The notes under the pieces were generated by a model. It had not been told where the DNA came from. It saw only the letters and a program-made list of their open reading frames with translations, and ran no database searches. DNA of 64,000 nt, from NCBI GenBank assembly GCA_032622095.1, contig CP136063.1:62819897-62883896 (forward strand), written 5' to 3'. Source of the stretch: Siphonodentalium dalli (lineage: Eukaryota; Mollusca; Scaphopoda; Gadilida; Siphonodentaliidae). The translations under genes and the position numbers were made by a program. This document shows, piece after piece, positions 9,270 through 54,464 of this stretch (its first letter is position 1; the number at the start of each line of letters is the position of its first letter).

Positions 9270-10470
9270 GCTCGAATAAACAGTGTTCTCTTGTTGTGAG
9301 GGTACACTTGAATGGCCGGGAACACGATAGGTATATAGTCAGATCGATTTTATATCCACAGCTACGTTTACAATACGCTTATGGGTGAAGTGCCGCGTAT
9401 GATGCAAATAAACCAGCTAGAATTCAAAGTATATAAGCGCACGTGGGTGTTGTGTGACTCTTGTGTGAATTGTAATGGGAAATATAATCGCTCTTATGCA
9501 TGATTATATATCAGAATATGTTACCTGGTTTCAGCGTAGCATCATGCCAGGTGGTACCGGTATGTCATATCACGCATTTATAGCGCTACACAATTTGCTG
9601 AATGAACCACCGGGACCATATGTTTACTGGCAATCGTTCATCGATAATCATGTCTGCACGTAGCTATTGACATCTGTTTTTTCGTACATATTTGAAAACA
9701 ATTAAGCTCATCGCTCACCATAATTGCAAAATGCCCTCTTAGTGTGTGACTATCAGGTTTGAATCTAACGAAGATACTGCTTTGTTTGAAAAATTGTTGT
9801 CCCTATAAGTATAAATGGGAATCAATACGTTGGAAAATTGTACTGGCTAATTATTTAATCATACTGATATTGATATTACTCAAATTTTGACAATTTTCGA
9901 CGACCATTTTGGTAGCCATCTTGAAATGTCGACACATTCTCAGCCATGCACACCCAAAGCATATTGTTTACAATCAGATGTCCATATCGAGACTGTATTC
10001 GTGTTTGGTCAATTTGACTTTGTGAGTAATTTGCCCTAGCTATTTATTAGTTTCGGTGGCTATGTTGAACGCCAACTTGAATTTCTGGATAGTTTGGATG
10101 TGTTAAAAAATAATTGTTATTCTGCGTCTAATGACACCAAAATCCCTTTCTTGACATTTTATTCTGTTTAACACTCAAATGACCATATTACACAATGGAA
10201 CAACGCGTAATGGACCAGCTGGGAAGGCAGAACCTGATACTTTTAATAGACCTTTGCCGTGGGCTGATTGTTTTGACCGATAACAATGTTCCGGCTCCGA
10301 ATACCAGTTTTCGTACTACCCGATTTGCCGAAGACACACGAGGAGGTCCGGCAAACTTCGGCGGTACCACCGAGCTAACAGGTGAAAACAAATTGTTAAC
10401 GTGCGATAAAACCTGGAATAAATCAACGAATAGATGCTATGCTCGCGGTAAGATTGTACAATTTGTAGAT
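9270..10470. other. no gene recognised
   Basis: The 62- and 93-codon frames here carry no signature. The segment ends at the insertion site of the large transposon, so it is the left pre-insertion flank. Confidence 0.4.
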
Positions 10471-10473
10471 CAA

Positions 10474-10482
10474 TGATTTTTC
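10474..10482 (+). repeat. left target-site duplication
   Basis: TGATTTTTC here recurs exactly at 25524-25532, directly outside the other end of the 15 kb element. The shared string extends to 12 bp (ATGATTTTTCTA). With symmetric ends TAGTC...GACTA the duplication is 9 bp; with ends moved in by one base it is 11 bp. Confidence 0.85.
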
Positions 10483-11297
10483 TAGTCCAAAATTGACTAT
10501 ACATTGAATGTATAGTCCAACTTTCCCCATCGCTGGTAACGGAGCTTTTTCTTCAAGTCCGGAAAGGAAGAATGTGACGCAAGATACGACCAAACCGCGA
10601 TGTTTTCCGGGTAATACATGTGCTACTGCATCACCCTGACATACCTTTCATATTCCTTTTCCAAAAATGAGAGATTTATTGAGAATATACCGCGGGAGCC
10701 GACGGATTTTTAAACATTTTTAAACGTTGGGTTGTGCTCGATCGAACTCCGGTCACACCGCACTCGCTGTCGTGGGAGCAAGTATTTTCGTACCCTGACC
10801 AGCTCGTACCCTCCGAAAAAGTAAATTCGTACTCTAGCGCGAAACTATTTAGATATTTCAATAAGGTTTCTCATCTAATAACTTTGCTTATCTCATTTTT
10901 TTCACCGGGATTGAACGTATACTATGGAACCCACAGTGATCTCTTGGACGTAAAAGATACAGAAATAGAACAGAAACATGCCTGATCTCTTGGACGTAAA
11001 AGATACAGAAGTAGAACAGAAACCTGCCTATATATATATATATATATACATACAAATTAAATTAAATAACCATACTTACCTGTTTTCAATCGTCGTATTC
11101 CATCACTATGCGCCGTGTCGTAATCCAGTTTCTCATCTAATAACATAAATTTGTCCAACCTGTTTTAGGGAATGGGTCCTGGGTCTTTGCCATTGGGAAA
11201 CAAATTGCGTCATAGAGGTTTACACTTAGTAAGGCCTATGACCGATAACGATTATAATACTAGAGCTGTCAGTGTGAAAATAGTGTAATCAAATACT
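10483..11297 (+). repeat. left terminal inverted repeat
   Basis: The reverse complement of 24706-25523. The arms are nearly identical from about 10538 to 11275, including an 83-codon open frame (10734-10985) that encodes the same residues in both arms. They diverge in the outer 55 bp apart from the terminal TAGTCSAAAAT and hairpin layout, and again at the innermost 20 bp. Inside are a 45-bp direct duplication (10938-10982 and 10983-11027) and a TA microsatellite (about 11029-11048). Confidence 0.95.
10495..10517 (+). promoter_or_regulatory. 23-bp terminal palindrome, left end
   Basis: GACTATACATT and AATGTATAGTC are perfect 11-bp arms around a single G. It begins 12 bp inside the element terminus. 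Its counterpart at the right end has the same total length but different bases. It is a likely cruciform or transposase-recognition structure; the function is inferred. Confidence 0.7.
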
Positions 11298-11391
11298 TTG
11301 ATGTATATTATATTTGCCAATAAAAAACATCAAAACAATAATACATATTACAAATAAAAAAAAACAAGAATATGTGCATAGATAATATCAT

Positions 11392-14300
11392 TCACCACAG
11401 GCTCACGCGTTTGCCATCGCACATACATTCCCGTGAACAGAAACTGCAGCAGTTGCAGCGAGCGCAATTACATTTTAATTTATTGCACATCAAGTTACAC
11501 TTGATGTCCGAGACAACTAACGGGCTCATTCCTTCAACAATAAATTGTTTTAGAACCGCCGCTCGATAACAATGACTTCCTGAAATTATATCCGAAACCT
11601 CTTCAGGACAACAGCCGTGCCTCAGCACAACTGCAGAACTTTGCCTGCCATCACGGCCTGCACGGCCCACCTCCTGCCAATACGAAATAGAACTTGCTGG
11701 TGCACCCCAGTGTACAACAATGTCGATATCAGGGATGTCCATCCCCATGCCAAATGCTATCGTAGCGACAAGAACTCTCGTATTCCCATGTCTGAAATTC
11801 TGAAATGAACATAGAATAAATTAACACGTATAAATGATGTTTGTTGCCACAATTGTTTTTTGAATGACTTTATTGTAAATGTATTTATAAACTATTATAA
11901 GATAAAGCATTTGAGAACAAGTTGTTTTCTTAATAGTGAATTTAACTGATTGCCAATGCATGATTGAATGATGAAAAGTGAATTACTAATATACAGACCT
12001 AGTATATATTGGGTTCACATAGTATCATTATCATATTATATAGATTTGAGACTCTAAAGAATTTATTTCACAGTTGGCGCGAAGTAAAGAATTTCACAAT
12101 TTTACTGTTTCACTATTACCTCTGCTATTGTCCCCCGATCGTTCAACAAAATACCCGCATGGTATTCCTCCACTGGCGGATCATCCAAACCTGCGCTCAA
12201 GAGAGCGTCACACAGATCCAGACAGACGCCAGAAACCGCATTTATAGTGCTGGAGAAAGAATGAATTGAAGCAAGTTAACCTACATTTAGAAGATGAAAC
12301 GGCTAAAAAATATATTCCAATGCTATTAACGTCATAAACGTTTATATAGTTCCCATTTGTCATGATAGCTGACACGCTATTGGTATAGTTATATATAGTT
12401 TTAATAACATAACTTATTAAAAAGATGTTGGTGTATCTTTGTTTCCTACCTCCCATATATCAAAACTTTCTTCCCTTTGCTTCCGTTTGTTGATAAATCA
12501 TCAATGAGCCATTGGAAGTTTTGGACGATGGCTGTTGTTGTTTTCTGTACATGTAGAAATATGTTTGGTCTGCATGAAATTAAAAGAAAATATTATAATA
12601 ATAATTTTTTGCTAATGATTAAACTACAACAAAATGATGCATGAACAGAGTATAAAGTAGCTGGATAACACACTGTACAAGATTTTTAAAAAAGACTGCG
12701 ACAGCAATGTAATTCATCACCAACCTGTCAGGTAACGCCGCAATGCAAGATGTATCCGACGCTAATGCCAGATAATGCATTATATCGCTCTTGATCGCAC
12801 TGGTTACCGTTGCTGTGGTTGCCAACATAGGTACCTGGAATATGCTTCGTAGGTAGGACAGCCTCCTGTAATCTTTGCGAAAATCCTCACCCCTGTTAAA
12901 ATGTACTGTGATAAGTCATTACTAAAGGCTACATACTACATGTATACCACAAATCGCCAATATCGCATGACAATAAGGCAACAATATTATACCAGTCATT
13001 GTCCAATTAAAAATATACATAACATAAGGCCATTAAGCTCTCATGATTCGCCATCCTCGCGGTCATGATAATGAACATAAAAAGATATGCATTGGATTGC
13101 TTAAAAATGAACGTGAAATAATGATCTTCCAATTGAAGAAGTATGTAACAACAAACAACATACATGGTAGACATAAATGCACAGCATGAAACATTGTATT
13201 GAAGTAAATGTTTTAAAAGGTTCGTAGACGTACCATTCGGAAACACAATGGCACTCATCTACTGCAATTAAACATATGCGCTCCAGCCACTTACGACTCC
13301 TGAAAGCATTCTTCCACTTCTTCTTCAACGCATTCTCCGGTGATGTATACACGAAGGTTAATTCGGCATTCTCAATAGCTAAAAAAAAACACACAAAAAA
13401 TAGTCTTTGGCATACATTGCATAATATGTAATTGGTCAAAATTGGTTAAATATTATGTAACAAGTTTTATACGTTCCATATAATTTCTCGCCTAATATGC
13501 GTTCATTCCCGGGAATACATATAACCCTCTAAAGTTCTGTGAAACACTTCACATTATAAATGACCTAAAACTGCTCAAGTACATCTAAAATGAACACAAA
13601 CTTTATAAACAAACACTTGTAAATCACGAACGACTTTAGTCAATCACAGCAAACTCTGGTTAACTTAATTCAGTTCATGTGTATTGCAAGCTCATATCTC
13701 TGATACATGTATTGAAATAAGATACAACAGGCATTTTATTACATGTAATTTATAATACAATAATTTGTATGCAGTCGATACCCACAGAGAGTGGTTTTTA
13801 CAAAGTGATATTAATAAACAGAAAATATACCATCACTTGTTGTAATTCTGTCGTCGCCGATACGACCGGCTGTAATACCTTTGGACCGCAACAACTGTAT
13901 CTGTTCTTCCATGAGGCCAATCAATGAAGAAATCACCAATACAACATTGTTCTTGTCAGGATGAATCTGAATTACGGTAATAGCATTTATGTATTACAGG
14001 CCCAAACTCGCTGAATCATCACATGTCGCAAAAAAATAAAAATAACAAAGTGCTACATTAAGAAATTTGAGTTCAACCAAACCTATCTAATAACACTCAC
14101 CGGGTCAGAGTATACATGTGCACGAATTTCCATGCCACATATGTTTCAAGCGTTCAGTCGCCAAGCCAGATTAATAAATTGAATTAATTGTTAGTGCCCC
14201 TTTAACAATTCTGAGGTCCACTCTAGCGTTTTTCCACCAGCTTGACGTATCAATGGCAATGTACATGAACTTTCGTAGAGCAATGTTTTCTCCAAGAACC

Positions 14301-14803
14301 CCCTGTGGGGCGCCCCCAGCTCGTGTCTCGGATCATATATTAATAGTGCCCAATTGTCCATAAATGCCCACGACACCCCTACTTTCACATATACACACAC
14401 ACACACACACATACCAACTTCAACAATCGTGGCCATAAGCCGTTCCATTTACACCTATATATAATACACATAAGCATGCAACCACTCCTTAATTATCCAT
14501 ACACCCCACCCAAGATCATACATGCAGCAAAAACATGTATACAAACGAATACACCCATCCATGACAATAAAGCCACCCAATTCCGCGGAATCGACGGAAG
14601 GTACTGAGGTGCCCAATTGGATAACTCATACCAACCTTATTCAAAATTAATGGCGGCAAAATATAACACATTGATTTCCCGTAACCAGTTGGCAAGAATG
14701 ACATCACATCTTCTCCACTTAACAACGCATTTATGACATCTAGCTGTTTGTCCTTCAAACAGAAATCAAACCCAAACTCGTAGCAAACAGTCTGTGCGTC
14801 CAT
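11392..14803 (-). CDS. RecQ-type SF2 DNA helicase of the transposon
   Basis: Seven exons on the minus strand: 14803-14636, 13966-13831, 13378-13234, 12892-12725, 12569-12450, 12249-12120 and 11799-11392. Together they make 1275 nt, 424 residues and a stop. Every junction has GT/AG and a matching phase. Motifs in order: Walker A LPTGYGKS (37-44), [14 protein letters not shown] (motif Ia region), DECH (142-145) followed by [22 protein letters not shown] (173-178), [10 protein letters not shown], then [17 protein letters not shown] and [10 protein letters not shown] (331-340) with the two motif VI arginines. This is an ATP-dependent 3'-5' DNA helicase core of RecQ type. The C-terminus has ten cysteines in residues 390-416 in place of the usual four-Cys zinc module, and there is no winged-helix RQC or HRDC domain. 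Its ATG is 152 bp from that of the divergent transposase gene. It probably unwinds DNA during transposition or repair of the donor site (inference). Confidence 0.93.
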
Positions 14804-14955
14804 TTCGAAGCAATGTGGGTCATGACAGAATCTGGTGGCGCCCTTGGTTAGCGGATCTGCTTATCAGTGCGCATGAGAACAGGAAAAACCCATAGTTCCT
14901 GGTTTCTGTTGATTTGTTTTGATGGAAGGGACCATTGTTATTTGTTCTCAGTTGA
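14804..14955. promoter_or_regulatory. 152-bp bidirectional intergenic region
   Basis: The only sequence between the divergent start codons of the helicase gene (14803, leftward) and the transposase gene (14956, rightward). Both core promoters and 5' leaders must lie here unless there are upstream non-coding exons. I see no clear TATA box. The arrangement would couple expression of the two proteins (inference). Confidence 0.65.
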
Positions 14956-17900
14956 ATGATGGCGACGTGTGCAAATTGCGATGCAGAGTTCGTTAAAAAA
15001 CCCAATAACAAGGGTTACGAAAGACACGCTTTCACAGCAAAATTGTACAAAAACCAGGAAATTACAATCGAAAGTGCGTTGCAGACATGTTTGGGTGGCG
15101 GCATCACCCCGAAAACTGGACGGGCAACCCGTTTTTTATGCATTAAATGTACTAATTTACTAAGGGATAGCCACCGATCCGGCGGTGATAAACTTTACGC
15201 AGCCACTGCCAACGACAGCTATCTCTGTAAGAAGACACATGTACCTTCAACTCCAGGGAGGACTCCCAAGAAAGCCAAACGGTTAAAGTTTTCAACACCT
15301 GCGAAGACATTTAACAAGCCTACTCCAAAAAAGGTAATGGTTGTTTATATTGAAAAAAGAATTAATTGATAGCTGTTATAATTCATATATACTACAATGG
15401 GTTCTTCATATCACCAAATGCACTGTACTATTACAATGAAATACAATGGACAAATCTAGAGACAGTTCTGGTTAAAACATTGAGACATTGGGGGATATCT
15501 ATTAATATTACCACCAGAAGCAATTAGCTCTGTGTCGCATCAGATGACTTCTATGTCGATTACATGGAGTCTGACACCACAGCGCACACAATATATATCA
15601 CAGACAATGTTTACAAGAAAACCATAGTCAGAAATGGTAACGCCACCAAGATCATATTATTAGCCATAAATATAAATTATAATATAAAATATATTGGTTA
15701 CATGAATGCACCGCCTCAGAATTCCGTTAAAACAACTAATCCTTCAAATTATTAAAAAAAACTATGGCTTATTACTGCAGGTTTCTCGTTCACCACACCA
15801 GAAAGCTTCTAAATGCGGATAAAAAATCGGAGGTATTGTGTTCCCGCCAAGAGTGCATGGCCCAGCCATTGTTCATACCTAAACGTCGAAAGCAAATAAC
15901 GCGGTCATAATGGTTACATACTGCAACTATAAGACATCCAGCGAATACACACCCCACGAAAACCCGAAATGTGTTGTCCTGCGAGATATCCCATCGCTAT
16001 AGCTCAATTTGACACGGCCTGATTAGTCTTTCTACAATATCCTAAAACAATAAAGCTTCTCATATCATCGGCATAGTCAATAGAATTTTCACGAACTTGG
16101 ACATTCCAACTACAGCTTTTACCGGACTCGGGTTCGCAGTACAATTTAAACGCGTCCCAAAATAACCGCATTCGGGTTAGCACTACAGTTTTTAAAGCGA
16201 CCCAATCTATTTATAAAACCTACATCGGCCCATGTCTTTCTAATATTTGGCCAACAGTATACACCGGTGGCGTTAACGACTGCATGTATATGGATTCCGA
16301 CAAACACACGGATGGCTGTATCGCTTTGCTGATAAGATTTTATAATTGGTTGACATTGACGTAATGCTCTCTGGTGGTAATTGGGGACCCCGATAGGTCT
16401 CCAGACTCAATACAGCATACATATTGAGTGTGTTTTAACCAGAACTTATCTGGAGACGTGGACTGGTTATGTACTTACGTGGAATGGGTGGGTGTTACAA
16501 GTATAGTCGTGCACTATACTAATGTGTAACAATCTTCGTCTTGCAGGTCCGCATCAGCAACGTTTCTCACAAACAACCAGGTGGGAGCATTAATGTGGCG
16601 ATACGGTTTCTACAGAAAAAACAGTACCACAGAGCCGTGCAGGCCCTTCTAAAATGTTCGTCGCCGTTGCAGAGGGCCTTTAGAGTTGTGTTTGCCCAGG
16701 AGTTGAGGAATGAAATGATATGCCTGCTGAAGGACAAATCATTTACTGATATATTAAAATGGGGTGATGTGAACCATTTTAAATGGGACAGCCTAATTGG
16801 TCAACTGGCCAACAAAGCACCAGCGGTATATGGCTCATTGGTTGCACTATTGCCGAAGAAAAAGAGAAGGTATAATTCTCCACCTTACACGCACACGATT
16901 GGATAGCGATCGGGTTCACTATTATATAGCGATTTGAAAGCACTTCTTCAAAGATCTCAATCATAACCGTGTGTGATACGCGAGATTGTGATTTAATATC
17001 AGTCGCTATCTATATATAATCGTGAACCCAGATTAGGTATATTTCGCTATCCAATCGTGTGGTGATTGGTCAGATCAGATCAAGAACATCATAACTATCT
17101 ATTAATGTCTCATATTATAATTGCCTGAAATAACTGAATACATGTCACTTACGATTGTATAGTTCACGCACTCAGAGTTGGACGATATGGCAATCGTAAA
17201 AAGGTGTGCATATATACTCTGTATATATTCTAGATCACAGTCGTTTGGGAAGTAATGTCAAAATATAACCCCGTACATGCAAAGATACCTATATTTACAA
17301 ATTTGTAAAATCTATATCTCATCACTCTGAGCTTTGATGGGTGGGTTCCTTGACTCGAATAACATATCTTTTTACCCCAGAAGCCAAAGAAATAGTAATT
17401 GGGAGGCGTTAAATAAGATTATGTAGCTTTAAAATTGAAATGTCGCTTTATTAAGCAAGTTTTACTAATTTATTCAGCACGGCGGGTGGCAGCTTTTCGC
17501 AAGACTTGACGAAATATGTCGGCTCAATAATTTGCCAAGTGCTGTTTGTATGGAGGAAGCAGCTGAACCTTCTCCAATTCATGAACTCTTTGGAAATGTG
17601 GATCGGCGGGTGTAAGATGTCTGTATGTATTTTATATATAAGAAAAAGTAAGATGCAAGCAACCCATCAACAGATATTATGACAAATTTTAAAAGTAAAA
17701 TGTGTGTAGGCTAGCTATTTTCATCAGGTGGAAACTGCCCACGTATACACGTGTACTGAAGATGCATTTTACATACGATATATATGAAGTATTTATTTGA
17801 TAACTACTAAACCTTCATCCATGTATTCTAATTTTACCAAATTTCAAATTGAAAAAAAAAACCGTTGACATGAATTTTCATCTTTGTTTTTTTAATTTTA

Positions 17901-20900
17901 TACTGCATATTACTTGATATGTTAAGTTTATACATGATATACGCACATATTCTAAACACGTTAATATATTTTAAATGCATAACTAAAAAGGAAGCGATGT
18001 GACCATGCATGACTCGTGTTTATTAAACACTGAAGTCGCCAAGATGTGACATACTAAAAATATCCCCTCGTAAATATGTGTTGTCAAAGGTATTTACCCT
18101 TTTCTCGCGCATAGGTCATACATCAATTCAACCATATGGGATGGTGCATGAGTCCCACAACAACACTGGCGTGTGTGGACAAGTTCCGGCAGAGGTACGA
18201 TAAGAAGATCTTGGTCGAAAAAGAAACAATTGAGGTAAGTGTAAGGGATGTGGGTAAAGGGGCGGGGAAACATTCATTCAATTGCTGAAGATGTTGAACT
18301 ATATCTTAATAAACTAATCGTGTTTTATGGCAATATACCATACATGTTGTGGCCTGGATTATATATTGACAGGATTTATAAAATTATGTGTTACCTTTGA
18401 TACACGACAGGTAATATTACTAGACGATAATGTTAGCATTGTAACCATGTGCATTATATATCGTTACAGAAAGCATTGCTCCAGAAACCCGTTGATGTCC
18501 CCCATCAGGATGACAAACCATCGACGAGTACTGGACGAGGGACAAAACGACGACTGTTCGCGGTCGAGAAACAGCTTGGTTTGTACACCATAAAAGACGA
18601 AAAATTAATATATGGAAACACAATTAATTCAAAACTATATGGAGTATATCCATAAACGATATAGCTCGCAATGATTTCGCAATAACAATGTAGATCGTGG
18701 GTATGAACTGGTTGCAGGAACCAAGTCTGTCTTTTCTGAACTAAACTTGATTTTGGTATGTTGGCATGTGCATGTGGGAATACCCAACTCACTGGACTAT
18801 AGTAATGGAGCCGATCCATGAGATGTTATAGAATCCTACTCATACATGAGCACCATGTAGTTGTTAACACATCAGAGAGACAGGGCTCCAGCTATATATA
18901 TCAACTTGAACCATTCGTCAGTGTATTTAAATGTTGGCCATGTCATGTATACCGGTATATTCAATATAAATGCTGATATTAATGTATTTATTCATTATAT
19001 AGAACAGCCAGCTCAACCACCAGGCTACACACTCTGCTGGGACAACATAGGACGGCATACGAAGGCCAGACACCAGACACTGAAATCAACAAATAAGCAA
19101 CATCTTTGGGCCCTCAGCTATGCGGCCATCAACCGGGTCCCGACAACCCACCTGAATTCGACGGATGGTCAGCTAGCGGAAACCATTCCTCTCACGAAAC
19201 TGATTCCTTCTCCAGATGATGTTAGCTGGCTGAGGGGTCGGCTCGAGTTTACTATTAAATATATTGTGTGCAACAATCTGCCTTTCTTTACCAGACTGAA
19301 AAATCGCACTAAGAGGTATCCATATTTTGAGAATAGTGGTGCCATGTCTCAAAAGAGCGAAATTGTAAGTATTTTGATATTGGCAATTGCATAGTTGTGC
19401 TGACGTGCCTAGTTTATATTGCAATATATCACATTTTCAAATAAACTGGAAAATAACAATATGGAGTCTATAGACCTGTAGTTGACTAGTACGCATGGGA
19501 GCGGACTGACAGACGGACGCACGGACTAATGAATAGCAATATGGCCAAATTAAAAAAGAGGAGTATGATGAGTCATAATTTATTTATATACATATTAATT
19601 TGAAAATATAATATGTGTGATGTGTGAACACGAGTTGCGGATACCCACTGGTGCGAATTCATTCAGGTTTATGTAGTTATTTGTCTTTGTTTGCGGTCGT
19701 CAACGGTCACACGCGTGCCAGTAGACCCCGAAGCCACGACAAATAGTTTTCATGGCTGGCTCAACCGATTTTCGTGGCTGGTTAGCTAGCTAAGCCGGCT
19801 CAGTCACGACGTTCGTGGCTGACGAAATATGGCGGCTCAGCCGGCTGAGATGTTATCATTCAGCGTATTTTCGTTTCCGAAATGTTCCTAATCCCCTGTT
19901 ACCGGTTATAGACGCCGTTTTTTTTAGCGTTTGTTGTGAACGCGTAGAATTCCAGACCACACGTAATCTTTTGATGTTGGGCTTTTCCATTATGGCGAAA
20001 TTTCACGAAGGACTGGCATGGATATACTATGTAGTTTCCCATCTAATCGGTATAAGTAGTTACATTGGGACTTCTGTCGACTTCAGACTGCTATCATCAC
20101 TGCCATCTTGCGATATATGCATGCATCATTGAATGATGAACCCGATAGTAATGATATATAATATTTCAAACTATTTTCTATTCTTATGTGTATATATTGA
20201 CAAATGCCAGTGATGTCTGAGACTGGGTGTGGTCGATATAAACAATTTATATTTTAACCCTTTCAATACCGAATGGATGCGCCCATTCAGTTATATGAAA
20301 GCATGCATTGGGATAGTCTATTCCACATTAAGGGGCCATGTGTTCTGATAATATAACAACCATGCCGTGTACATGCGAGTATGCCAATATTAGGCAATGC
20401 GGTTTAGTTCTTTACAATTCACAATACAGTTGTGCTTGACATATAAGCCCATGCACACGGCTCAGCCATTTTACAATTCCGGCGGCGGAGATTTTTAAAT
20501 GTGGCTGGCGTTAGATATAATATGGCTGGCGGCGGCTTGTGGCCAATATGGCTGGCGGCGGCGGCGTGCGATGGCGGCTTCGGGCTCTACGTGCCAGTGT
20601 GTATGTGTTTTCCCCACCTTTTGATTAATATCGGTCTTAGGTCTATATGTTATCGTTAATTTATTGACTTTCAGGTAAATTTGGGAGTTATACGGGAAAA
20701 TCCGTCTACATCAGCGGGAACGATTAAAATCGTTGAAACTCTACAGAAGTATGTCCCCAAAGTTAATGGTCAGTTACAGCCAGCAATCCTGTTTGGAGAT
20801 GGTCTCTCGTGCGAACGCCATAACGATGCACACAAGGCCCGTGCCAAAATGACGACCCCAGAGCTGAGGCTAGAAGGACTCGAACCAGGAATGCAGGATT

Positions 20901-23900
20901 TTCACAAACGGATGATCAGCATGCAGGTAACCTTATAATTATGTTGTGATAATTATATCTGAAGCAATGAACTCTCATACTGAATAAGTGCCTCCACAAC
21001 TCTGATATATTTATATATGCTAGTCGTATGTACATCTTACCACGAACAACATATATACGCAGCACACACGGCATGCATGGGTTGAACTCAGTTTCCGCGT
21101 GCATATAGACACCAGACTTTCAGTTTACGATATTATATAATTATCTAACAGATTATTTTCTGAGAATTAAAGCCTACTTTATTAAGTATAGCATTATTAT
21201 ATTACAGTAACCACAATTAATGCCGAATGATAATTTCACAAGTCTTAATAACCATATGCCAACATCTTATTATACTTTTGGTGTGTTACATTGAAGATAA
21301 TTCTGTTATCCAACCTACAACATGGCGATCTTGAACAACATTCCATACTTGTTAAGTGTTAAATTTTGTGTCTACATTACAACTAATCCGTCCTAATAGA
21401 AACTTATTTATACTCCCAGGACACGATGGATTTGCTTTTTAGCGGATCGAGCGTTGGAGAGAGGGGGACTTTGGCTCATATCAAAAACTTATATGGCCAT
21501 CGCTCCGTTGCGAAAGATGTATCAAAGTGCTTTAACCATGCTGCGGACTTACTTGAACACGCCACCGACAGTATGATAATAACCATGGCTATGGATCATT
21601 TGGGTATTGTCACTTGTGGTGACCATCCATGTGATGTAAACGAGACAAGCATGAAGGACATGGAGGAACTCTTGAATGGAACCGCGGAGCATATAGGTAC
21701 GTATAAATAATTCCCTTCAATGAGGAAATTGTGTCCTCATTTTATACATTCGTGTTTACTGCTTTATCTAATTAAATCAGTATTATTTGTACAGTCCTGA
21801 ATAAAGTCCATTGTATCTTGTTGCATCCGTGATTATATTCGCTATGTTAACACATGTTTATGTTATATAGCCATCCATGCAATAATATTCAAGCTATACG
21901 CATTTATTCTAATTTATAAACAGAGTAACCTATCAACTCAGTTACCTAATCACTCCATACCCAAATGATTCATCTCATTTATCCAAAAGCCTACCAGATA
22001 TAACACTTTACTGCACAGAATTAATTTGCCACCCAGCTTCATTAATGAATATTGCACAATGTCCTCTCATTTGCCTGTAAGCCCACTTTCCATGACCACT
22101 AGCTTGCATCTCTGTCTACATACAATTTGATGCGACTCGTTGTCACTTTCTCTCAGTGTGTCAATATACAGTATACATTTCTATGCATGTTCGCCAATAG
22201 TCTCTGAGATATGGGCAGATCCGGGTTATGAAGATTTGTGGCGTGAGGCGCAGATACAGGAGAAACAGAGAGAATCTTTGTTGGGTGGATCAGTTGAAGA
22301 AGGTGAGCGTTCTATATGTTTTTATTGAGGTGATTGCGGATGCTATTGAATGTATTCGTGTGTGATTATAGGTAATGAATCGCAGTTCGATTGTGTCATA
22401 CTCATATGTTTTGATCGACAGCAATTAAAGTTATTACACAGAGTTTACTCTGCGGGTCAACATCAAATGTCCCCAATCGAACTTTGAGTCATTAATTATA
22501 GTTAAGAAGTGAGATTGATATTAAAACTCACATGTTATCGATTGCAGATGACGAACCCGCTACTGTTGAAGCCACCGAATACCTGTTCTGCATTTGTAAG
22601 GACGACAAAGGTGACGATGCTCCGATGGTGTGTTGTGATAACGATCTGTGCCCAAATGGCGAATGGTTTCACTACGAGTGTATGGGACTTACGGTGGAAG
22701 ATATTCCAGGTAGACTTATAACTATGACATTTTAGATTTAGCTCAATAGGATAACACAAGTTATTTTATATATAACGTCTATTAAATACAAAATATGATG
22801 ATGGTCTTCAATGTCGATTCTAAAAAAATATACATTATTGTGTTCTTAATAGGTGGAAAACGACGGTGGTATTGTGGTGGTGATTGCAAGAAGGCCGGTG
22901 GCAAGAAGAAGGGGAAAGTCAAAGAAGACTGTAGCAGAAGACAATATGCAAAAACTCTTGTGTGGAGGGGAGTGGGTGACAGAATTAGGAAGGAGGCGAC
23001 TAGAGCCGGGGACGGATTGTCAATAGTACGGTTGTATTTATTCGACGCCATCGACTTCTATACCAACAAGCACCCGAAGTACCTGATTCTCGCCCATCGG
23101 CTGATTGTTGGTATGTTTATTAAGTATATCAGTAAAGTTTATGAATGAATACACGTGTGTTGTTTTAGACAACATAATTCTATCAATATTTTGCCTAACT
23201 GAATTCTCTTTATAAATTTTTTGAAATTGTTATATAAATACGAGTAAGGAAAAACACTATACAGATGATTGTGAAAATTCAACAGACATTTCAACATTCA
23301 TTCGTGGCCTATTGCTCGGTATCGTATAATTTGCCACAATGAAGCATGTCTATGAATCATGTTCCACGATGAAAAGTCTACCTAGATGACGATAACAACA
23401 ACTGGAATCGCTCCTAATATCAACATGTCATTGTTAACTTTGTCACACAGGAATAAATGGTTGGCTTTCAGAAAAGCTAAAGGAAGACCTCGTCAACAAC
23501 AGGACGGTAAACTATTCTGGTGGGCTGATGCGGAATATTCCAATGGACCAAGCTAACGAATATTTGAACAAGGTACCAATTTCATTTAGCATTTCCCTTA
23601 AGTTAGGAATATCATAACTTTTTGTCCAGTAAGATTCATGTGTTGACAAGGAGCAAAAAAGGCCAATTCGTATTACTAATATCAGCCATTGTGATATCCC
23701 TCAAAAGTTCATTTAATTTTGTTTCCATCAACGTGTAATAGTATATGTAACATGTGTGGCCGTATCTGTTTGCAGTGAGCATACAAATTAATACAATATG
23801 AATTATATATAACATTCAACACTTATTTTTGTTAGGAACTAATAGAGAGTTTGTCAAGGACGGGTCAGCTAACTGACAAAACAGTGGACCGCCATGGGAC

Positions 23901-24463
23901 CATGGTTGGCGGGATTACGAGAGAGGTACAGGAAAGTTACCACGATCTGTGTGGATTGAAGAATCGGGGTCCAGGACGAGGTATTCTAAGAAGTTCACCA
24001 GTTCAATAATATTGTTAATAATATGCTATTCAATCTGACATCAACCTATTTTTTGTCTCTGCCGAACGAAAATATTCACAAATTATGATGCTGAATCGAT
24101 CATGTGTTGTGGTCGTATCACACATTGCATAAATTTAAAATTTACGCAGTCCTAATGTATGTCTCATTTATTAGATATTAGATCATACTGTGTATATACC
24201 ACATTTAAAACGCATGTTCTTTTATTTTCTTTGCAGCCAAACATTTCGACAGATCAAACGACATTCAGAAGTTGGCAGAGGAGTGTTTGCGGGAGGGCGT
24301 ATTTAATAAGTCGGCAACACCTCTCAAATCATTCAAGAACGTCAAACTCCCGACCGTCACAGATCCCCATAAATTTATATCCAAATTGGCACATCTGTCT
24401 GAGAGGCTTGATTTGAGGAGGCGGGTGGTGGCTCGCAAACCACGCGGAAAGAAGAAGAAATAA
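14956..24463 (+). CDS. PHD-finger DUF6589-like candidate transposase
   Basis: Fourteen exons: 14956-15333, 16547-16869, 17478-17622, 18115-18234, 18470-18578, 19003-19364, 20675-20926, 21420-21696, 22201-22302, 22548-22709, 22853-23110, 23451-23572, 23836-23980 and 24237-24463. Together 2982 nt encode 993 residues; all joins are GT/AG and in phase. The N-terminus has two C-x2-C pairs (CANC and CIKC), a probable zinc-binding DNA-contact module. Residues of about 360-660 resemble DUF6589: WDN (D372), LFGDGLSCERHND (D521), RLEGLEPGMQDFHKRM and ERGTLAHIKNLYGHRSV. An ING-type PHD finger spans about 704-755 (C704, C706, C719, C724, H731, C734, C751, C755). NEYLNKEL (E866) is a candidate third acidic residue. 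The tail RKPRGKKKK is a likely nuclear signal. The DDE role of D372, D521 and E866 is inference. A second ATG lies at 14959. Confidence 0.88.
15453..16457. repeat. ~1-kb inverted-repeat insertion in transposase intron 1
   Basis: GTTCTGGTTAAAACA (about 15466) faces its complement TGTTTTAACCAGAAC (about 16430). ATTACCACCAGAAG (about 15508) faces the complement of CTCTGGTGGTAAT (about 16369). The arms are imperfect, about 75 bp. A CAG acceptor at 15780 would open a short alternative exon that stops after 13 codons, so I did not use it. Confidence 0.55.
16890..17062. mobile_element. MITE in transposase intron 2
   Basis: CACACGATTGGATAGCGA (about 16891) is the reverse complement of TCGCTATCCAATCGTGTG (about 17044). 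The inner parts also pair (GGTTCAC with GTGAACC). It is a non-autonomous element of about 170 bp inside the intron of the large transposon. Confidence 0.75.
17308..17440 (+). repeat. half copy of the 57.3 kb palindromic MITE
   Basis: ACTCTGAGCTTTGAT, GGTGGGTTCC, GACTCG, ATCTTTTTACCCC and GATTATG follow in the same order as at 57590-57710. This is a partial copy inside intron 2 of the transposase gene. Confidence 0.7.
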
Positions 24464-24705
24464 ACCCACTTTCGACACATGTTTTTGTCTTTGTCTGATT
24501 TTGTTTGTATTATACACTTGATGACTACACTTTGTGTCGAACGATTACAGTCCATCTGAGCGAATAGGGAAAGCATACAACAATTGTCAGCAAACTGTCC
24601 ATTCCCATTTCCCAAATTCATGGAAAATCTTCTGGTTTTCTAAAGAAAAAAAATAGAAATTTCCCTTCCATTTACAAGATTTTCTTCATACTTAATTTGC
24701 ATAAC

Positions 24706-25523
24706 AGTATTTGATTACGTTATCTTCACACTGACAGCTCTAGTATTATAATCGTTATCGGTCATAGGCCTTACTAAGTGTAAACCTCTATGACGCAATT
24801 TGTTTCCCAATGGCAAAGACCCAGGACCCATTCCTTAAAACAGGTTGGACAAATTTATGTTATTAGATGAGAAACTGGATTACGACACGGCGCATAGTGA
24901 TGGAATACGACGATTGAAAACAGGTAAGTATGGTTATTTAATTTAATTTGTATGTATATATATATATATATATAGGCAGGTTTCTGTTCTACTTCTGTAT
25001 CTTTTACGTCCAAGAGATCAGGCATGTTTCTGTTCTATTTCTGTATCTTTTACGTCCAAGAGATCACTGTGGGTTCCATAGTATACGTTCAATCCCGGTG
25101 AAAAAAATGAGATAAGCAAAGTTATTAGATGAGAAACCTTATTGAAATATCTAAATAGTTTCGCGCTAGAGTACGAATTTACTTTTTCGGAGGGTACGAG
25201 CTGGTCAGGGTACGAAAATACTTGCTCCCACGACAGCGAGTGCGGTGTGACCGGAGTTCGATCGAGCACAACCCAACGTTTAAAAATGTTTAAAAATCCG
25301 TCGGCTCCCGCGGTATATTCTCAATAAATCTCTCATTTTTGGAAAAGGAATATGAAAGGTATGTCAGGGTGATGCAGTAGCACATGTATTACCCGGAAAA
25401 CATCGCGGTTTGGTCGTATCTTGCGTCACATTCTTCCTTTCCGGACTTGAAGAAAAAGCTCCGTTGCGAGGCATGGGGGAAATTTCGACGGGATATCTTT
25501 AGTATCCCGTAGATTTTCGACTA
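24706..25523 (-). repeat. right terminal inverted repeat
   Basis: The inverted partner of 10483-11297. Read inward it begins TAGTCGAAAAT. After the 23-bp palindrome and a diverged stretch it becomes nearly identical to the left arm from AACGGAGCTTTTTC (25465 inward) to about 24728. The inner limit is set by the shared GTAATCAAATACT at 24706-24718. Confidence 0.95.
25488..25510 (+). promoter_or_regulatory. 23-bp terminal palindrome, right end
   Basis: ACGGGATA and TATCCCGT are 8-bp arms around a 7-nt centre. It starts 13 bp inside the right terminus. Its length and place match the left palindrome (10495-10517) although almost no base is shared. Confidence 0.7.
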
Positions 25524-25532
25524 TGATTTTTC
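25524..25532 (+). repeat. right target-site duplication
   Basis: TGATTTTTC, identical to 10474-10482, directly outside the GACTA terminus. Confidence 0.85.
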
Positions 25533-41329: not shown

Positions 41330-41826
41330 ACCCCCTTGTATCACACCGCTGTGACCAGCCATGGTAACATACACATGAAATGTTTAAACCGATCAGACAG
41401 TGTTTACTGCAATATAAGTATATTTACACCCAAACCCTGTGCTACCCCTCTGTGACTACGTGATCGGCACTATGACGTACACACGGAATAGTGAAATAGA
41501 GCAGACAATGTCCCATGCAATACAAGTACGCACACCCTAACCCCATGTCGCCACGTCTCTACACGGCACATATTGTGACATGTGAAAACATAATGGTCCC
41601 ATGCAATATAAGTGCGTACACGTCAATCCCACGTAGCCGCGTCCCTACATATAACCAGTCGTGAGCACATGTAAATGAAATTGTCAAACAGACCCGGAAG
41701 TGTCACAATCAATATTGGAAAAGCAGTACATACGTGCACACAATCGCCCCTCGCCGCCTTCTGAAATTTTCAATTATACCCGATAGTGTCGCATACGATA
41801 TAAGTACTTACACCCCAACCCCATAT
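41330..41826 (+). repeat. degenerate ~100-bp tandem repeat
   Basis: Blocks of the form GTCCCATGCAATATAAGT, then ACACCC(T/A)AACCCCAT, then CTCTACAC-like recur near 41391, 41504, 41590, 41698 and 41783. It leads directly into the 29-bp minisatellite, so that array may have started from its last unit. Confidence 0.6.
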
Positions 41827-43611
41827 CCCAGTCCGATACCCTAGTGGTAATACATCCCAGCCCGATACCCTAGTGGTAATACATCCCAGTCCGCGATACC
41901 CAAGTGGTAATACATCCCAGTCCGATACCCAAGTGGTAATACATCCCAGTCCGATACCCAATTGGTAATACATCCCAGTCCGATACCCAAGTGGTAATAC
42001 ATCCCAGTCCGATACCCTAGTGGTAATACATCCCAGTCCGATACCCAAGTGGTAATACATCCCAGTCCGATACCCAAGTGGTAATACATCCCAGTCCGAT
42101 ACCCAATTGGTAATACATCCCAGTCCGATACCCAAGTGGTAATACATCCCAGTCCGACACCCTAGTGGTAATACATCCCAGTCCGATATCCAAGTGGTAA
42201 TACATCCCAGTCCGATACCCAAGTGGTAATACATCCCAGTCCGATACCCTAGTGGTATTACACCCAGTCCGATACCCAAGTGGCAATACATCCCAATCCG
42301 ATACCCTAGTGGTATTACATCCCAGTCCGATACCCTAGTGGTAATACATCCCAGTCCGATACCCTAGTGGTAATACATCCCAGTCCGATACCCAAGTGAT
42401 AATACATCCCAGTCCTATACCCAAGTGGTAATACACCCCAGTCCGATACGCTAGTGGTAATACATCCCAGTCCGATACCCAAGTGGTATTACAGCCCAGT
42501 CCGATACCCAAGTTGTATTACATCCCAGTCCGATACTCTAGTGGTAATACATCCCAGTCTGATACCCTAGTGGTAATACATCCCAGTCCGATACCCTAGT
42601 GGTAATACATCCCAGTCCGATACCCAAGTGGTAATACATCACAGTCTGATGCCCTAGTGGTAATACATCACCGTCTGATACCCTAGTGGTAATACATCCC
42701 AGTCCGATACCCAAGTGGTAATACATCCCAGTCTGATACCCTAGTGGTAATACATCCCAGTCCGATACCCTAGTGGTAATACATCCCAGTCCGATACCCA
42801 AGTGGTAATACATCCCAGTCCGATACCCAAGTGGTAATACATCCCAGTCTGATACCCTAGTGGTAATACATCCCAGTCTGATACCCTAGTGGTAATACAC
42901 CCCAGTCCGATACCCAAGTGGTATTACATCCCAGTCCGATACCCAAGTGGTAATACATCCCAGTCCGATACCCAAGTGGTAATACATCCCAGTCCGATAC
43001 CCAAGTGGTAATACATCCCAGTCCGATACCCTAGTGGTAATACATCCCAGTCCGATACCCAAGTGGTAATACACCCCAGTCCGATACCCAAGTGGTATTA
43101 CATCCCAGTCCGATACCCAAGTGGTAATACATCCCAGTCCGATACCCAAGTGGTAATACATCCCAGTCCGATACCCAAGTGGTAATACATCCCAGTCCGA
43201 TACCCTAGTGGTAATACATCCCAGTCCGATACCCAAGTGGTAATACACCCCAGTCCGATACCCAAGTGGTAATACATCCCAGTCCTATACCCTAGTGGTA
43301 ATACATCCCAGTCCGATACCCTAGTGGTAATACATCCCAGTCCGATACCCTAGTGGTAATTCATCCCAGTCGGATACCCTGGTGGTAATACATCCCAGTC
43401 CGATACCCTAGTGGTAATACATCCCAGTCTGATACCCTAGTGGTAATACATCCCAGTCCGATACCCAAGTGGTAATACATCCCAGTCCGATACCCTAGTG
43501 GTAATACATCCTAGTCCGATACCCAAGTGGTAATACATCCCAGTCCGATACCCAAGTGGTAATACATCCCAGTCCGATACCCAAGTGGTAATACACCCCA
43601 GTCCGATATTT
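41827..43611 (+). repeat. 29-bp minisatellite, ~61 copies
   Basis: The unit is CCCAGTCCGATACCC, then AAGTGGTAATACAT, 29 bp, with no spacers. The main variants are CCCAAG, CCCTAG and CCCAAT at the same place. Because 29 is not a multiple of three, the same peptide phrases (YYHLGIGLG, DWDVLPLGY) appear in all three minus-strand frames; the long open frames are by-products. A six-unit higher-order repeat of exactly 174 bp is visible at 42901-43074 and 43075-43248. The array ends at the truncated edge of the Penelope-like element. Confidence 0.97.
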
Positions 43612-43616
43612 CGTAG

Positions 43617-45656
43617 CACGTGCTATACCCAATTGGCCAAGCGAGAAACTTGACCACATGCACTATTATATGCTGGGTACTCTGGACACCGCCCCCTGGG
43701 AGAAATGCTTCTTTAGACGTATACATTGATACTTTCAGAGAGAGGGCGAAAGCTCAAATTCTTTCGAAAAAGCAGAAGTTATTATACAATCTCCGACCTT
43801 TAGAACGACGAGCCATCAGAACACTGCAGAACAAAAGAGATATTGTCATTAAACCGGCTGATAAGGGTGGTGCCACTGTTGTGATGGATAAGACAGCGTA
43901 CATTCAGGAAGCGAAACGGCAACTTAACAATCGGGAGTTTTATGTTTGTCTTGAAGAGGATCCCACTGCCGATTTCGAAAAAGAACTTTCACAACTTTTG
44001 GCGGAACTCCCAGAGGTAGATAGGAATATTATCTCCCCGCTTACCGTTTCAAAACCGCGACCGGGTATCTTCTACACCCTGCCCAAGATTCACAAGGAAG
44101 GGAACCCCGGAAGACCCATCGTTTCGGGAATTGGAACCATAACCGAGAAAATTTCGAGTTATGTCGATGCTACACTCAAACCGACAGTTCGCGCGTCAGA
44201 TAGCTTCATACAGGATACTACCGATTTTATCAGGAAATTAAAGGCCGTTGGATCAACAAGTTCGGATACCCTGTTAGTCACCATGGATGTGGTGTCCCTA
44301 TATTCTCAAATTGAACACACAGATGGCATAGCGGCAGTTCGACAGAGATTTCACGACGATGATACTGAATCAGACGGAGTAACTAAAGATTCGGTTATGA
44401 AGTTAATTGAATATATTCTTAAACATAACTATTTCGTGTTCGAGAATAAGTTTTACAGACAAATTAAAGGTACTGCAATGGGGACACCCATGGCGCCTCA
44501 ATATGCCAATATATTCATGACAGAGTTGGAGGAAAAGTTCTTAGCTACACAGACTCTCAAACCGCGAATTTATCTCAGGTTTATCGACGACATATTCATG
44601 ATATGGGAACACGGAGTCGCTGAATTGGAAATATTTCATCGAGCATTCAATCAGTGCAATCCTTCAATCCAGTTCAAAATAGAATTTTCTCACACCGATA
44701 TCAGCTTTCTCGATGTTACAGTCGAAAACAATGCCGATCAGTTATTCACAAAGGTATTCAGAAAACCTACGGACAGATTTTCATATCTAAACCCCATTAG
44801 TTTTCATCCCGACCACACGAAACAAGCCATTATCTACAGTCAAGGCATTCGTTACCAGCGCATCAATTCTCAGGAAAAAGTAAGAGACGAACAGTTCAGT
44901 GAACTACGCTCACAATTCTCGAATTTGGGATACGACAGACGTTCGATTAATAAACAATTGGGAAAAGCGAAATGTTTGGACAGGGAGATGCTCCTTCAAT
45001 ATCGGGACAAAACATCATCAGATCGAGTTCCCCTCGTGGTAAACTACTACCCTCAGCTAGAAAAATTACGCACAATAACTACATCTCTGAATGGCATTAT
45101 TACGAGCGACCTTCATCTCAGGAACGTGTTTAACGAAAGACCGGTTGTCGCCATGAGGCAACCACCCAACTTGAAGCGGAAATTAGTAACAAGTAAGCTA
45201 CCATCTTCTGGTGAACAGTCACCCAATGGTACATTTCCATGTAACAGGCCGAGATGTGGTATGTGTGTGTTAATTAACAAGGCCGATGTTCTTATGCGCA
45301 ATGGGCGCGTTTTCCAGGATGTGGGCCAGTTCTCGTGTGTCTCAAGTGGTGTTGTGTATATCATTACGTGCGCAAATTGTCCAGAAATGCATTACATTGG
45401 TGAAACAGGCCAACTTCTCTGCAAACGAGTGACGGGGCATAGGCAGAACATCAACAACAGGGACTTGAACCTACCCATAGCAGAACATTTCTGTCAACCA
45501 CAACACACACCCGATGACATCCGCATCAAAGTATTAAGAGGTGGACTTTCGGACATGAAAGAGAGACGTGTGGCCGAATTACAACATATAGAACTGTTTG
45601 GAAGTTTTTATCGTGGCATTAATAAGGACCGTGGTTTCATGGCGAGTTGGTCATAA
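43617..45656 (+). CDS. Penelope-like retroelement protein (RT + GIY-YIG), 5' truncated
   Basis: An open frame follows an in-frame TAG at 43614 and runs to a stop at 45654. The N-terminal part includes IVIKPADKGGATVVMD, typical of Penelope-like elements. Reverse-transcriptase motifs follow: YTLPKIHK and PGRPIVSG, LLVTMDVVSLYSQI (motif A Asp), GTAMGTPMAPQYAN (motif B), RFIDDIFMIW (motif C, FIDD in place of YxDD), ISFLDVTV (motif D) and YLNPISFHP. After a C-x4-C-x2-C cluster comes a GIY-YIG endonuclease: VVYIITCANC, HYIGETGQLLCKRVTGH, then LPIAEHF and ELFGSFYRGIN. No ATG precedes residue 89 of the frame (43884, inside the conserved domain), so the true N-terminus is lost at the minisatellite junction or lies in an unseen exon. 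The rest is intact, which suggests a recent 5'-truncated insertion. Confidence 0.93.
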   Translation, partial: HVLYPIGQARNLTTCTIICWVLWTPPPGRNASLDVYIDTFRERAKAQILSKKQKLLYNLRPLERRAIRTLQNKRDIVIKPADKGGATVVMDKTAYIQEAKRQLNNREFYVCLEEDPTADFEKELSQLLAELPEVDRNIISPLTVSKPRPGIFYTLPKIHKEGNPGRPIVSGIGTITEKISSYVDATLKPTVRASDSFIQDTTDFIRKLKAVGSTSSDTLLVTMDVVSLYSQIEHTDGIAAVRQRFHDDDTESDGVTKDSVMKLIEYILKHNYFVFENKFYRQIKGTAMGTPMAPQYANIFMTELEEKFLATQTLKPRIYLRFIDDIFMIWEHGVAELEIFHRAFNQCNPSIQFKIEFSHTDISFLDVTVENNADQLFTKVFRKPTDRFSYLNPISFHPDHTKQAIIYSQGIRYQRINSQEKVRDEQFSELRSQFSNLGYDRRSINKQLGKAKCLDREMLLQYRDKTSSDRVPLVVNYYPQLEKLRTITTSLNGIITSDLHLRNVFNERPVVAMRQPPNLKRKLVTSKLPSSGEQSPNGTFPCNRPRCGMCVLINKADVLMRNGRVFQDVGQFSCVSSGVVYIITCANCPEMHYIGETGQLLCKRVTGHRQNINNRDLNLPIAEHFCQPQHTPDDIRIKVLRGGLSDMKERRVAELQHIELFGSFYRGINKDRGFMASWS

Positions 45657-47104: not shown

Positions 47105-48935
47105 TCTGCATTGAAGTCACCTTATTAACCCTTTCTATATTACAACACCATTGGCGTGTAGTTACCTTATTAACCATTCTATATTAAATCATTAATTGAC
47201 AGGTAGTTACATTATTAACCCTTTCTATACTAAGTAACATTGGTGAGTAGTTACATTATTAACCCTTTCTATATTAAAGCACCATTGATGTGAAGTTACC
47301 TTATTAACCCTTTCTTTATTAAAGCATCATTGACGCGTAGTTACCTTATTAACCCTTTCTATATTAAAATATCATTGATGTGTAGTTACAATGTTAACCC
47401 TTTCTATAGTATAGCATCATTGACGGGTAGTTGGCTCCTTAACTCTGTATATATCAAAGTATCATTGTCGTATATAGTTACCTTATTAACCCTTTCTATA
47501 CTAAGTACCGTTGGCGTGTAGTTACCTTATTAACCCTTTCTATATTAAAGCATTAATTGACAGGTAGTTACCTTATTAACCCTTTCTATACTAAGTATCA
47601 TTGGTGAGTAGTTGCATTATTAACCCTTTCTATATTAAAGCGCCATTGGCGGGTAGTTACCTTATTAACCATTTATGTATTAAAGCATCATTGACGTGTA
47701 GTTACCTTATTATAACCCTCTCTATATTAAAGCATCATTATTGCTGGGTAGTTATCTTATTAACCCGTTCTATACTAAGTATCATTGGTGAGTAGTTACA
47801 GTATTAACCCTTTCTATATTAAAGCATCATTGACGTGAAGTTACCTTATTAACCATTTCTGTATTAAAGCAGCATTGACATGTAGTTACCTTATTAGCCC
47901 TTTCTTTATTAAAATATCATTGACGTGTAGTTACCATGTTAACCCTTTCTATATTAAAGCATCGTTGACGGGTAGTTGCCTAATTAACCCTCTATATACT
48001 AAAGTATCATTGTCGTGTAGTTACCTTACCAACCCTTTCTATACTAAGTATCATTGGCGTGTAGTTACCTTATTAACATTTTCTATATTAAAGCATTAAT
48101 TGACAGGTAGTTACATTAAACAACCCTTTCTATACTAAGTATCATTGGTGAGTAGTTACATTATAAACCATTTCTATATTAAAGCGCCATTGACGGGTAA
48201 TTACCTTATTAACCATTTTTGTATCAAAGCATCATTGACGTGCAGTTACCATATTATAACACTTTCTATATTAAAGCATCATTGACTGATAGTTACCATA
48301 TTAACCCTTTCTATATTAAAGCACCATTGGCGTGTAATTACCTTATTAACCCTTTCTACGTTGAAGCAATAATTGACAGGCAGTTACCTTATTAACCCTT
48401 TTTATAATGAGTATCATTGGTGATTAGTTACATTATTAACCCTTTCTACAATAAAGCATCATTGACATGTAGTTATCATAGTAGCCAGTTATATATTAAA
48501 GCATCATGGACGGTAGTTACCATATTAACCCTTTCTATATTAAAGCACCATTGGCGTGTAATTACCATATTAACCCTTTCTATATTAAAACATCATTGAC
48601 GTGTAGTTACCCTATTAGCCCTTTCTATATTTAAGCATTGACGTGTAGAACTTTATCTTATTAACCCTTTCTTTATTAAAGCATCATTGACATGTAGTTA
48701 CCTTAGTAACAATTTCTACACTAAAGCATTATTGACGGGTAGTTACCTTATTAACCCTTTCTATATTAAAGCATCATTGACAAGAAGTTAAATTATTAAC
48801 CTTCTATAATAAGTATCATTGCCGTGTAGTTAGTTACCTTATAAAACCTTTCTATATTAAGACGTCGATCATTGACGGGTAGTTGTTACCTTATTAATCA
48901 TTTATGTATTCAAGCATCATTGACGAGTAGTTACC
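47105..48935 (+). repeat. 45-bp satellite, ~40 copies
   Basis: The unit is TAGTTACCTTATTAACCC, TTTCTATATTAAAGCATC, then ATTGACGGG, about 45 bp, with indels that give 42-49 bp units. Since 45 is a multiple of three, several units translate in one frame with a 15-residue periodicity (YLINPFYIK-like). Frequent frameshifts and no long frame argue against coding. Alternating ACTAAGTATCATTGG and ATTAAAGCATCATTGAC variants hint at higher-order structure. Confidence 0.95.
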
Positions 48936-48959
48936 TTATTACTTGAAGTTTATTATGAC

Positions 48960-54247: not shown

Positions 54248-54464
54248 CAGTAATTCTAGAGCTAATTAATCGACTCCTTAACTACAGCAGAATTATGGGT
54301 AACTTTTCAGGATTTAGTCCGAAATATGGCTTGTTGCCATTCATCGGAAAGCTCTCACCGAGAGCTTTCCGATGAATGGCATCAACCCATATTTCCGACT
54401 AAATCCTGAAAAGTTACCCATAATTCTGCTGTAGTTAAGGAGTCGATTAATTAGAGCATTACTG
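54248..54464. mobile_element. 217-bp mariner-type snapback MITE
   Basis: A nearly full-length palindrome with TA on both sides: CAGTAATTCTAGAGC, TAATTAATCGACTCC and onwards to the centre CTCTCACCGAGAG, then back. Only a few bases break the pairing. TA target and CAGT ends fit Tc1/mariner. Confidence 0.88.

What the first reader, a model, noticed from the sequence alone, without database searches (positions are those of the whole stretch)
10483..25523. Intact-looking 15 kb transposon pairing a RecQ helicase with a PHD-finger transposase candidate
Two divergent, stop-free spliced genes (424 and 993 residues) lie between ~815 bp inverted repeats with a matching direct repeat outside. A helicase core with all RecQ motifs beside a DUF6589/PHD protein suggests a cut-and-paste or replicative system that brings its own DNA-unwinding enzyme. 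The described AcademH lineage is the nearest relative I recall, so the combination may be a known type. PHD fusion, TIR length and terminal hairpins may still be new.
Basis: partly seen in the sequence, partly recalled or inferred. Interest (0 to 1): 0.9.

Follow-up and report, generated by a model that had tools for sequence, protein, structure and literature searches.

The report
Mollusc-type AcademH transposon carrying RecQ helicase
A complete-looking 15 kb animal jumping gene carries its own DNA-unwinding enzyme and a transposase with a built-in chromatin-reading finger; it fits a known kind, but its two ends carry hairpins that differ in sequence while sharing the same size and place.

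Summary
The element spans 10483-25523 (15,041 bp). It is flanked by a perfect 9-bp target-site duplication (TGATTTTTC), has TAGTC..GACTA termini and TIRs of about 800 bp. [quoted passage not shown] All 11 protein relatives returned carry PHD-like fingers (eight named molluscs, one acorn worm, two unnamed).

Helicase plus 9-bp TSD matches AcademH (9-10 bp TSDs), which I could read only as quoted in a later paper.

The least ordinary part is at the ends. Inner TIR arms are nearly identical, yet each tip has a 23-nt hairpin, 12-13 nt from the terminus, whose stem differs completely between ends: 8 of 8 pairs formed in both are changed on both sides. This suggests the fold, not the sequence, is kept, but rests on one element. 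Copies and empty sites could not be checked because the whole-genome search did not complete.

The parts
10474..10482 (.). target-site duplication, left copy (TGATTTTTC)
   Evidence: identical to 25524-25532
10483..11310 (.). left terminal inverted repeat
10495..10517 (.). left tip hairpin, 10-bp stem, 3-nt loop
10937..11028 (.). two tandem 46-bp units inside the left TIR
11392..14803 (-). RecQ-core helicase gene, 7 exons (14803-14636, 13966-13831, 13378-13234, 12892-12725, 12569-12450, 12249-12120, 11799-11392), 424 aa
14959..24463 (+). DUF6589 transposase candidate with PHD finger, 14 exons, 992 aa
22548..23110 (+). exons 10-11, which carry the ING/YNG1-type PHD finger (residues about 701-755)
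24693..25523 (.). right terminal inverted repeat
24974..25065 (.). two tandem 46-bp units inside the right TIR
25488..25510 (.). right tip hairpin, 8-bp stem, 7-nt loop; stem sequence unrelated to the left one
25524..25532 (.). target-site duplication, right copy (TGATTTTTC)

Best explanation
This is an autonomous-looking DNA transposon of the AcademH kind in an animal, probably mollusc, genome. Shown by sequence: boundaries, 9-bp TSD, TIRs, two open reading frames over hand-built exons, domain content. Inferred: the DUF6589 protein is an RNase H-type DDE transposase (candidate triad D371, D520, E865) that pairs the two ends, cuts the element out and joins it to target DNA with a 9-bp stagger. 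Inferred: its ING-type PHD finger, set between D2 and E, binds histone H3 tails and biases target choice to H3K4-methylated (promoter-proximal) chromatin. Inferred: the RecQ helicase unwinds the ends or the post-excision gap, so that ends are exposed or repaired.
For: Perfect 9-bp TSD and symmetric termini. TIR arms 98% complementary over 792 nt, with one mismatch between alignment columns 75 and 798. Open genes. DUF6589 E=6.3e-24. RecQ core 1e-50 to WRN over residues 4-348; motifs [22 protein letters not shown]. PHD closest to YNG1 1.9e-10 and ING2 2.8e-10. Triad: D371 in 10 of 10 rows with a residue there (2 gaps), D520 in 12 of 12, E865 in 9 of 12. The two best helicase hits are 447-453 aa mollusc proteins (Patella 335 bits, Mya 251 bits) against 202 bits for the third, and both share a C-terminal Cys cluster with it. 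AcademH is described as generating 9 or 10 bp TSDs, with a helicase (PMC10045372 passage).
Against: No second copy or empty site seen (genome search did not complete). No reference Academ transposase was available, so DUF6589 = Academ transposase is recalled, not tested. Curated bivalve Academ consensus elements average 5,565 bp (PMC10294476 passage), far shorter than these 15 kb. E865 is not matched in 3 of 12 rows (probably truncated or differently spliced models). The AlphaFold model of relative P0001 has mean pLDDT 49.5, so it says nothing on an RNase H fold. The Pfam PHD match is below its curated cut-off (19.3 against 24 bits). No expression data.
Confidence: 0.85

Rival explanations
1. 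A RecQ-carrying transposon of another superfamily, such as Kolobok (KolobokH, or the rhodophyte Kolobok-1_CCri, which encode RecQ helicases).
For: RecQ capture is documented in Kolobok (PMC9587614 passages).
Against: The duplication here is TGATTTTTC, not the TTAA of Kolobok (recalled). The transposase matches DUF6589 and no other transposase family in Pfam. KolobokH is reported only from fungi.
Confidence: 0.05
2. [quoted passage not shown]
For: Rehavkus is listed with 9-bp TSD, 26-400 bp TIR, one ORF and a PHD finger (PMC6446971 table passage).
Against: Pfam gives only DUF6589 and two PHD families up to E=1, no MULE family. Rehavkus as described has one ORF and a minisatellite before the 3' TIR; here a helicase gene is added and the 46-bp repeats lie in both TIRs.
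Confidence: 0.05
3. The two genes are domesticated host genes lying between unrelated inverted repeats.
For: Many introns (6 and 13); relatives are annotated as ordinary genes such as 'YNG1-like protein'.
Against: Exact 9-bp TSD, symmetric termini and near-identical TIRs enclose these two genes; the 11 PHD-DUF6589 relatives share only 31-36% identity with it, less than I would expect of a conserved host gene (inference).
Confidence: 0.05

Closest known systems
AcademH (lineage of Academ DNA transposons; Kojima 2020, known here only through quotation in PMC10045372 and others)
   Same: Helicase gene beside a transposase; 9-bp TSD within the reported 9-10 bp
   Different: Original paper not held, so whether the PHD insertion, ~800-bp TIRs and tip hairpins were described cannot be said; 15 kb is longer than the 5,565-bp mean of curated bivalve Academ elements
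KolobokH / Kolobok-1_CCri
   Same: DNA transposon with a RecQ helicase
   Different: Different transposase family and TSD (TTAA recalled); KolobokH reported only from fungi
Rehavkus (MULE relative)
   Same: 9-bp TSD, long TIR, PHD finger in the transposase
   Different: One ORF in the description seen, so no helicase gene; different transposase family
RAG1-RAG2 / Transib-type recombinase
   Same: A PHD finger works alongside a DDE recombinase
   Different: The PHD sits in the separate RAG2 Kelch protein (PMC4411706 passages); no helicase gene (recalled)
IS200/IS605 ends (analogy only)
   Same: Subterminal hairpins at element ends
   Different: Those use single-stranded intermediates and TnpA (start of abstract of PMC6006769, listing); here a DDE-type candidate, TIRs and a TSD

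Membership tests
AcademH | Encodes a helicase beside the transposase | tested here: met
   RecQ core; definition from PMC10045372 passage
AcademH | TSD of 9 or 10 bp | tested here: met
   9-bp TGATTTTTC; definition
AcademH | Academ-type DDD/E transposase | tested here: inconclusive
   DUF6589 hit and candidate triad, but no Academ reference sequence to compare; no paper in the library holds 'DUF6589'
AcademH | Repeated in the genome with the same termini; empty sites | not tested
   The genome search did not answer in 16 attempts
KolobokH | Kolobok transposase and TTAA duplication (TTAA recalled) | tested here: not met
   TSD TGATTTTTC; the only transposase-type Pfam family is DUF6589
Rehavkus / MULE | MULE-type transposase | tested here: not met
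   No MULE family in the Pfam scan at E up to 1 (HMMER filters drop most matches above about 0.1)
Rehavkus / MULE | PHD finger in transposase and 9-bp TSD | tested here: met
   definition

The most novel reading that the evidence does not exclude
The tips of this transposon are recognised by shape: during transposition the element's own RecQ helicase peels the end single-stranded, the 23-nt hairpin folds, and the transposase reads the fold, so the stem sequence is free to change (and differs at the two ends) as long as it pairs. This would be a DDE-type eukaryotic transposon with helicase-exposed, structure-read ends, additionally steered to H3K4-methylated chromatin by an inserted PHD finger.
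Probability: 0.1. Interest if true: 0.8.

Novelty: new member of a known kind. Interest (0 to 1): 0.42.

Why it matters
An element with clean boundaries, both genes open and near-identical TIRs is a practical candidate for testing what a transposon-borne RecQ helicase does, a point that is inferred rather than shown in the passages I read. If the tip hairpins prove to vary in sequence while keeping their fold across copies, they would point to structure-based end recognition, which would be unexpected for this class. The inserted ING-type PHD finger makes a simple, testable prediction about insertion near active promoters.

Tried and rejected
AlphaFold2 on relative P0001 with an 11-row alignment gave mean pLDDT 49.5 and pTM 0.38; no fold search was run on it because its matches would be meaningless. 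A profile search with the 12-row alignment A1 returned nothing at E <= 1e-6, not even the known relatives, so I take it as a failure of the candidate filter, not as absence. A scan of viral contigs with A1 gave 102 pattern matches, none confirmed. Tip motif in the window: TAGTC[C/G]AAAAT with up to 1 mismatch gave 10 hits against 3.78 expected (1 of 100 shuffles reached 10); only the element's own two are exact. Of the other eight I examined three: the 54315/54391 pair, which belongs to a separate palindromic repeat, and 1230, which shows nothing like the tip. The inner tip motif with up to 2 mismatches gave only the element's two ends, both exact; 2.0 were expected by chance, so this says little. 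First drafts of the transposase exon 3 boundary were wrong and replaced. Chance palindromes, and ends taken from two subfamilies by recombination, were considered for the hairpins and remain open.

Full report
What is there. Between 10483 and 25523 lies a discrete 15,041-bp unit. The nine bases before it (TGATTTTTC, 10474-10482) are repeated exactly after it (25524-25532). Its termini read TAGTC[C/G]AAAAT inward from both sides. The inverted arms are 98% complementary over 792 nt. In an alignment of the two ends, columns 75 to 798 contain a single mismatch, while the outermost 75 columns match at 50 of 75 (10 of 12, 11 of 28 and 29 of 35 in three blocks). Each arm holds two tandem 46-bp units.

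Genes. On the minus strand a 7-exon gene (14803-11392) encodes 424 residues. Pfam sees DEAD and Helicase_C. The closest solved structures are WRN (1e-50, residues 4-348), then bacterial RecQ and RECQ1, RECQ5 and BLM. RecQ motifs are present. It has no room for, and Pfam does not find, RQC or HRDC domains. It ends in a Cys cluster, which aligns with that of three of the four proteins I compared it with: the Patella and Mya proteins and the unnamed P0014. On the plus strand a 14-exon gene (14959-24463) encodes 992 residues. Pfam gives DUF6589 (6.3e-24, residues 422-914) and a sub-threshold PHD match at 703-750 (19.3 bits against a cut-off of 24). Against solved structures that finger is ING/YNG1-type: YNG1 1.9e-10, ING2 2.8e-10, and 17 distinct PDB sequences at E <= 0.001, each named as an ING/inhibitor-of-growth or YNG protein. 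All introns are GT-AG. The exon models are hand-built and need RNA support.

Relatives. The transposase search returned 11 proteins: Mya (3), Ruditapes, Mercenaria, Mizuhopecten, Magallana, Mytilus and the acorn worm Ptychodera, plus two without a source name. A Cys/His pattern for a PHD-like finger matches 11 of 11, and by eye several have two. This set is biased: the search region (residues 240-940) included the finger. Candidate catalytic residues are D371 (10 of 10 rows with a residue; 2 gaps), D520 (12 of 12) and E865 (9 of 12). The finger lies between D520 and E865. The helicase search scored 7,997 candidates, of which 5,714 passed E <= 1e-20 and 120 were listed. The top two are stand-alone 447-453 aa mollusc proteins, with a clear gap to the third (335 and 251 bits against 202).

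The ends. Each tip carries a perfect hairpin of the same total length (23 nt) at nearly the same place (12 nt in on the left, 13 nt on the right). Laid over one another, the 8 pairs that form in both hairpins all differ on both sides; two further left pairs have no counterpart on the right. In 5,000 dinucleotide shuffles of each 60-nt end, a stem as long arises 2 times (left) and 8 times (right). As folded DNA the ends have z-scores of -3.54 and -3.41, with 0 and 1 of 200 shuffles folding as well. In the window itself, 60-bp stretches holding a stem of at least 10 bp or at least 8 bp are 13 and 62 of 3,197, so the joint chance by that yardstick is about 8 in 100,000 (my arithmetic), before counting the shared position. 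Because the neighbouring TIR is near-identical between arms, ordinary point divergence of one ancestral tip cannot easily explain tips that are fully different yet both paired. Either the tips come from two subfamilies that each keep a hairpin, or they are remade. Both readings imply that the fold matters more than the sequence. This is one element, two tips; it is a lead, not a result.

What it is. A later paper that cites the AcademH paper states that AcademH generates 9 or 10 bp TSDs and AcademX 3 or 4 bp, and links the difference to the encoded helicase and nuclease (PMC10045372, passages read). The present element has the helicase and a 9-bp TSD. Academ elements are reported as amplified specifically in bivalves (PMC10294476, passages read), in line with the relatives found; but the curated Academ elements there average 5,565 bp, so this one is unusually long. 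The equation of DUF6589 with the Academ transposase is my recollection and was not tested: no paper in the library contains the word DUF6589, and the original AcademH paper is not held. KolobokH also carries RecQ (PMC9587614, passages), and Rehavkus carries a PHD finger with a 9-bp TSD (PMC6446971, passages); both fail on the transposase or the TSD. RecQ capture and PHD capture are therefore each known in DNA transposons. I did not find the two together in the listings of five literature searches that bore on the question or in the passages read, nor a tip hairpin of this sort in the 15 of 33 papers listed by a sixth (listing only). That is weak, because the key paper is missing and full texts were not read.

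How it most likely works. Steps shown: boundaries, duplication, open genes. Steps inferred: the DDE protein pairs and cuts the ends and inserts with a 9-bp stagger; the helicase opens the ends or helps gap repair; the PHD finger reads H3 tails. For the last, the ING methionine and tryptophan positions of the lysine cage are kept (M715, W728), with F702 at the position of the ING tyrosine (cage positions recalled). The insertion lies 26 bp beyond a splice-donor-like GT that could end a first exon of a host gene (10197-10447, my reading; no Pfam hit), which would suit promoter-proximal targeting but is one case.

What could not be done. The whole-genome search did not complete (16 attempts), so copy number, other tips, empty sites and the species were not established. 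The structure model of a relative was too poor to use.

Noticed in passing
window 43617-45656: 679-aa open frame with a reverse transcriptase (RVT_1 2.7e-07) and a C-terminal stretch that looks like a GIY-YIG nuclease (read by eye): a Penelope-like element candidate, just downstream of a 29-bp satellite array (41825-43608, 61.5 copies).
   Followed up: partly
window 16892-17061 and 15507-16381: Inverted-repeat units inside introns 2 and 1 of the transposase gene (18-nt arms, 100%; 30-nt arms, 73% complementary): possible nested small elements, so the element may not be brand new or tolerates insertions in introns.
   Followed up: no
window 10197-10447: Open frame starting with ATG and ending at a GTAAGA splice-donor-like site 26 bp before the left TSD; no Pfam hit. 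Possible host first exon, with the transposon sitting at the start of intron 1.
   Followed up: partly
window 54259-54457: Near-perfect palindrome with arms of about 99 nt; an inner stretch resembles the element's terminal motif with one mismatch on each arm, probably by chance.
   Followed up: partly
window 63283-64000: 84-bp periodic array whose unit reads as C2H2 zinc fingers by eye, cut by the window end.
   Followed up: no
window 60222-60857 and 47115-48941: Minisatellite arrays (periods 24-65 and 45 bp).
   Followed up: no
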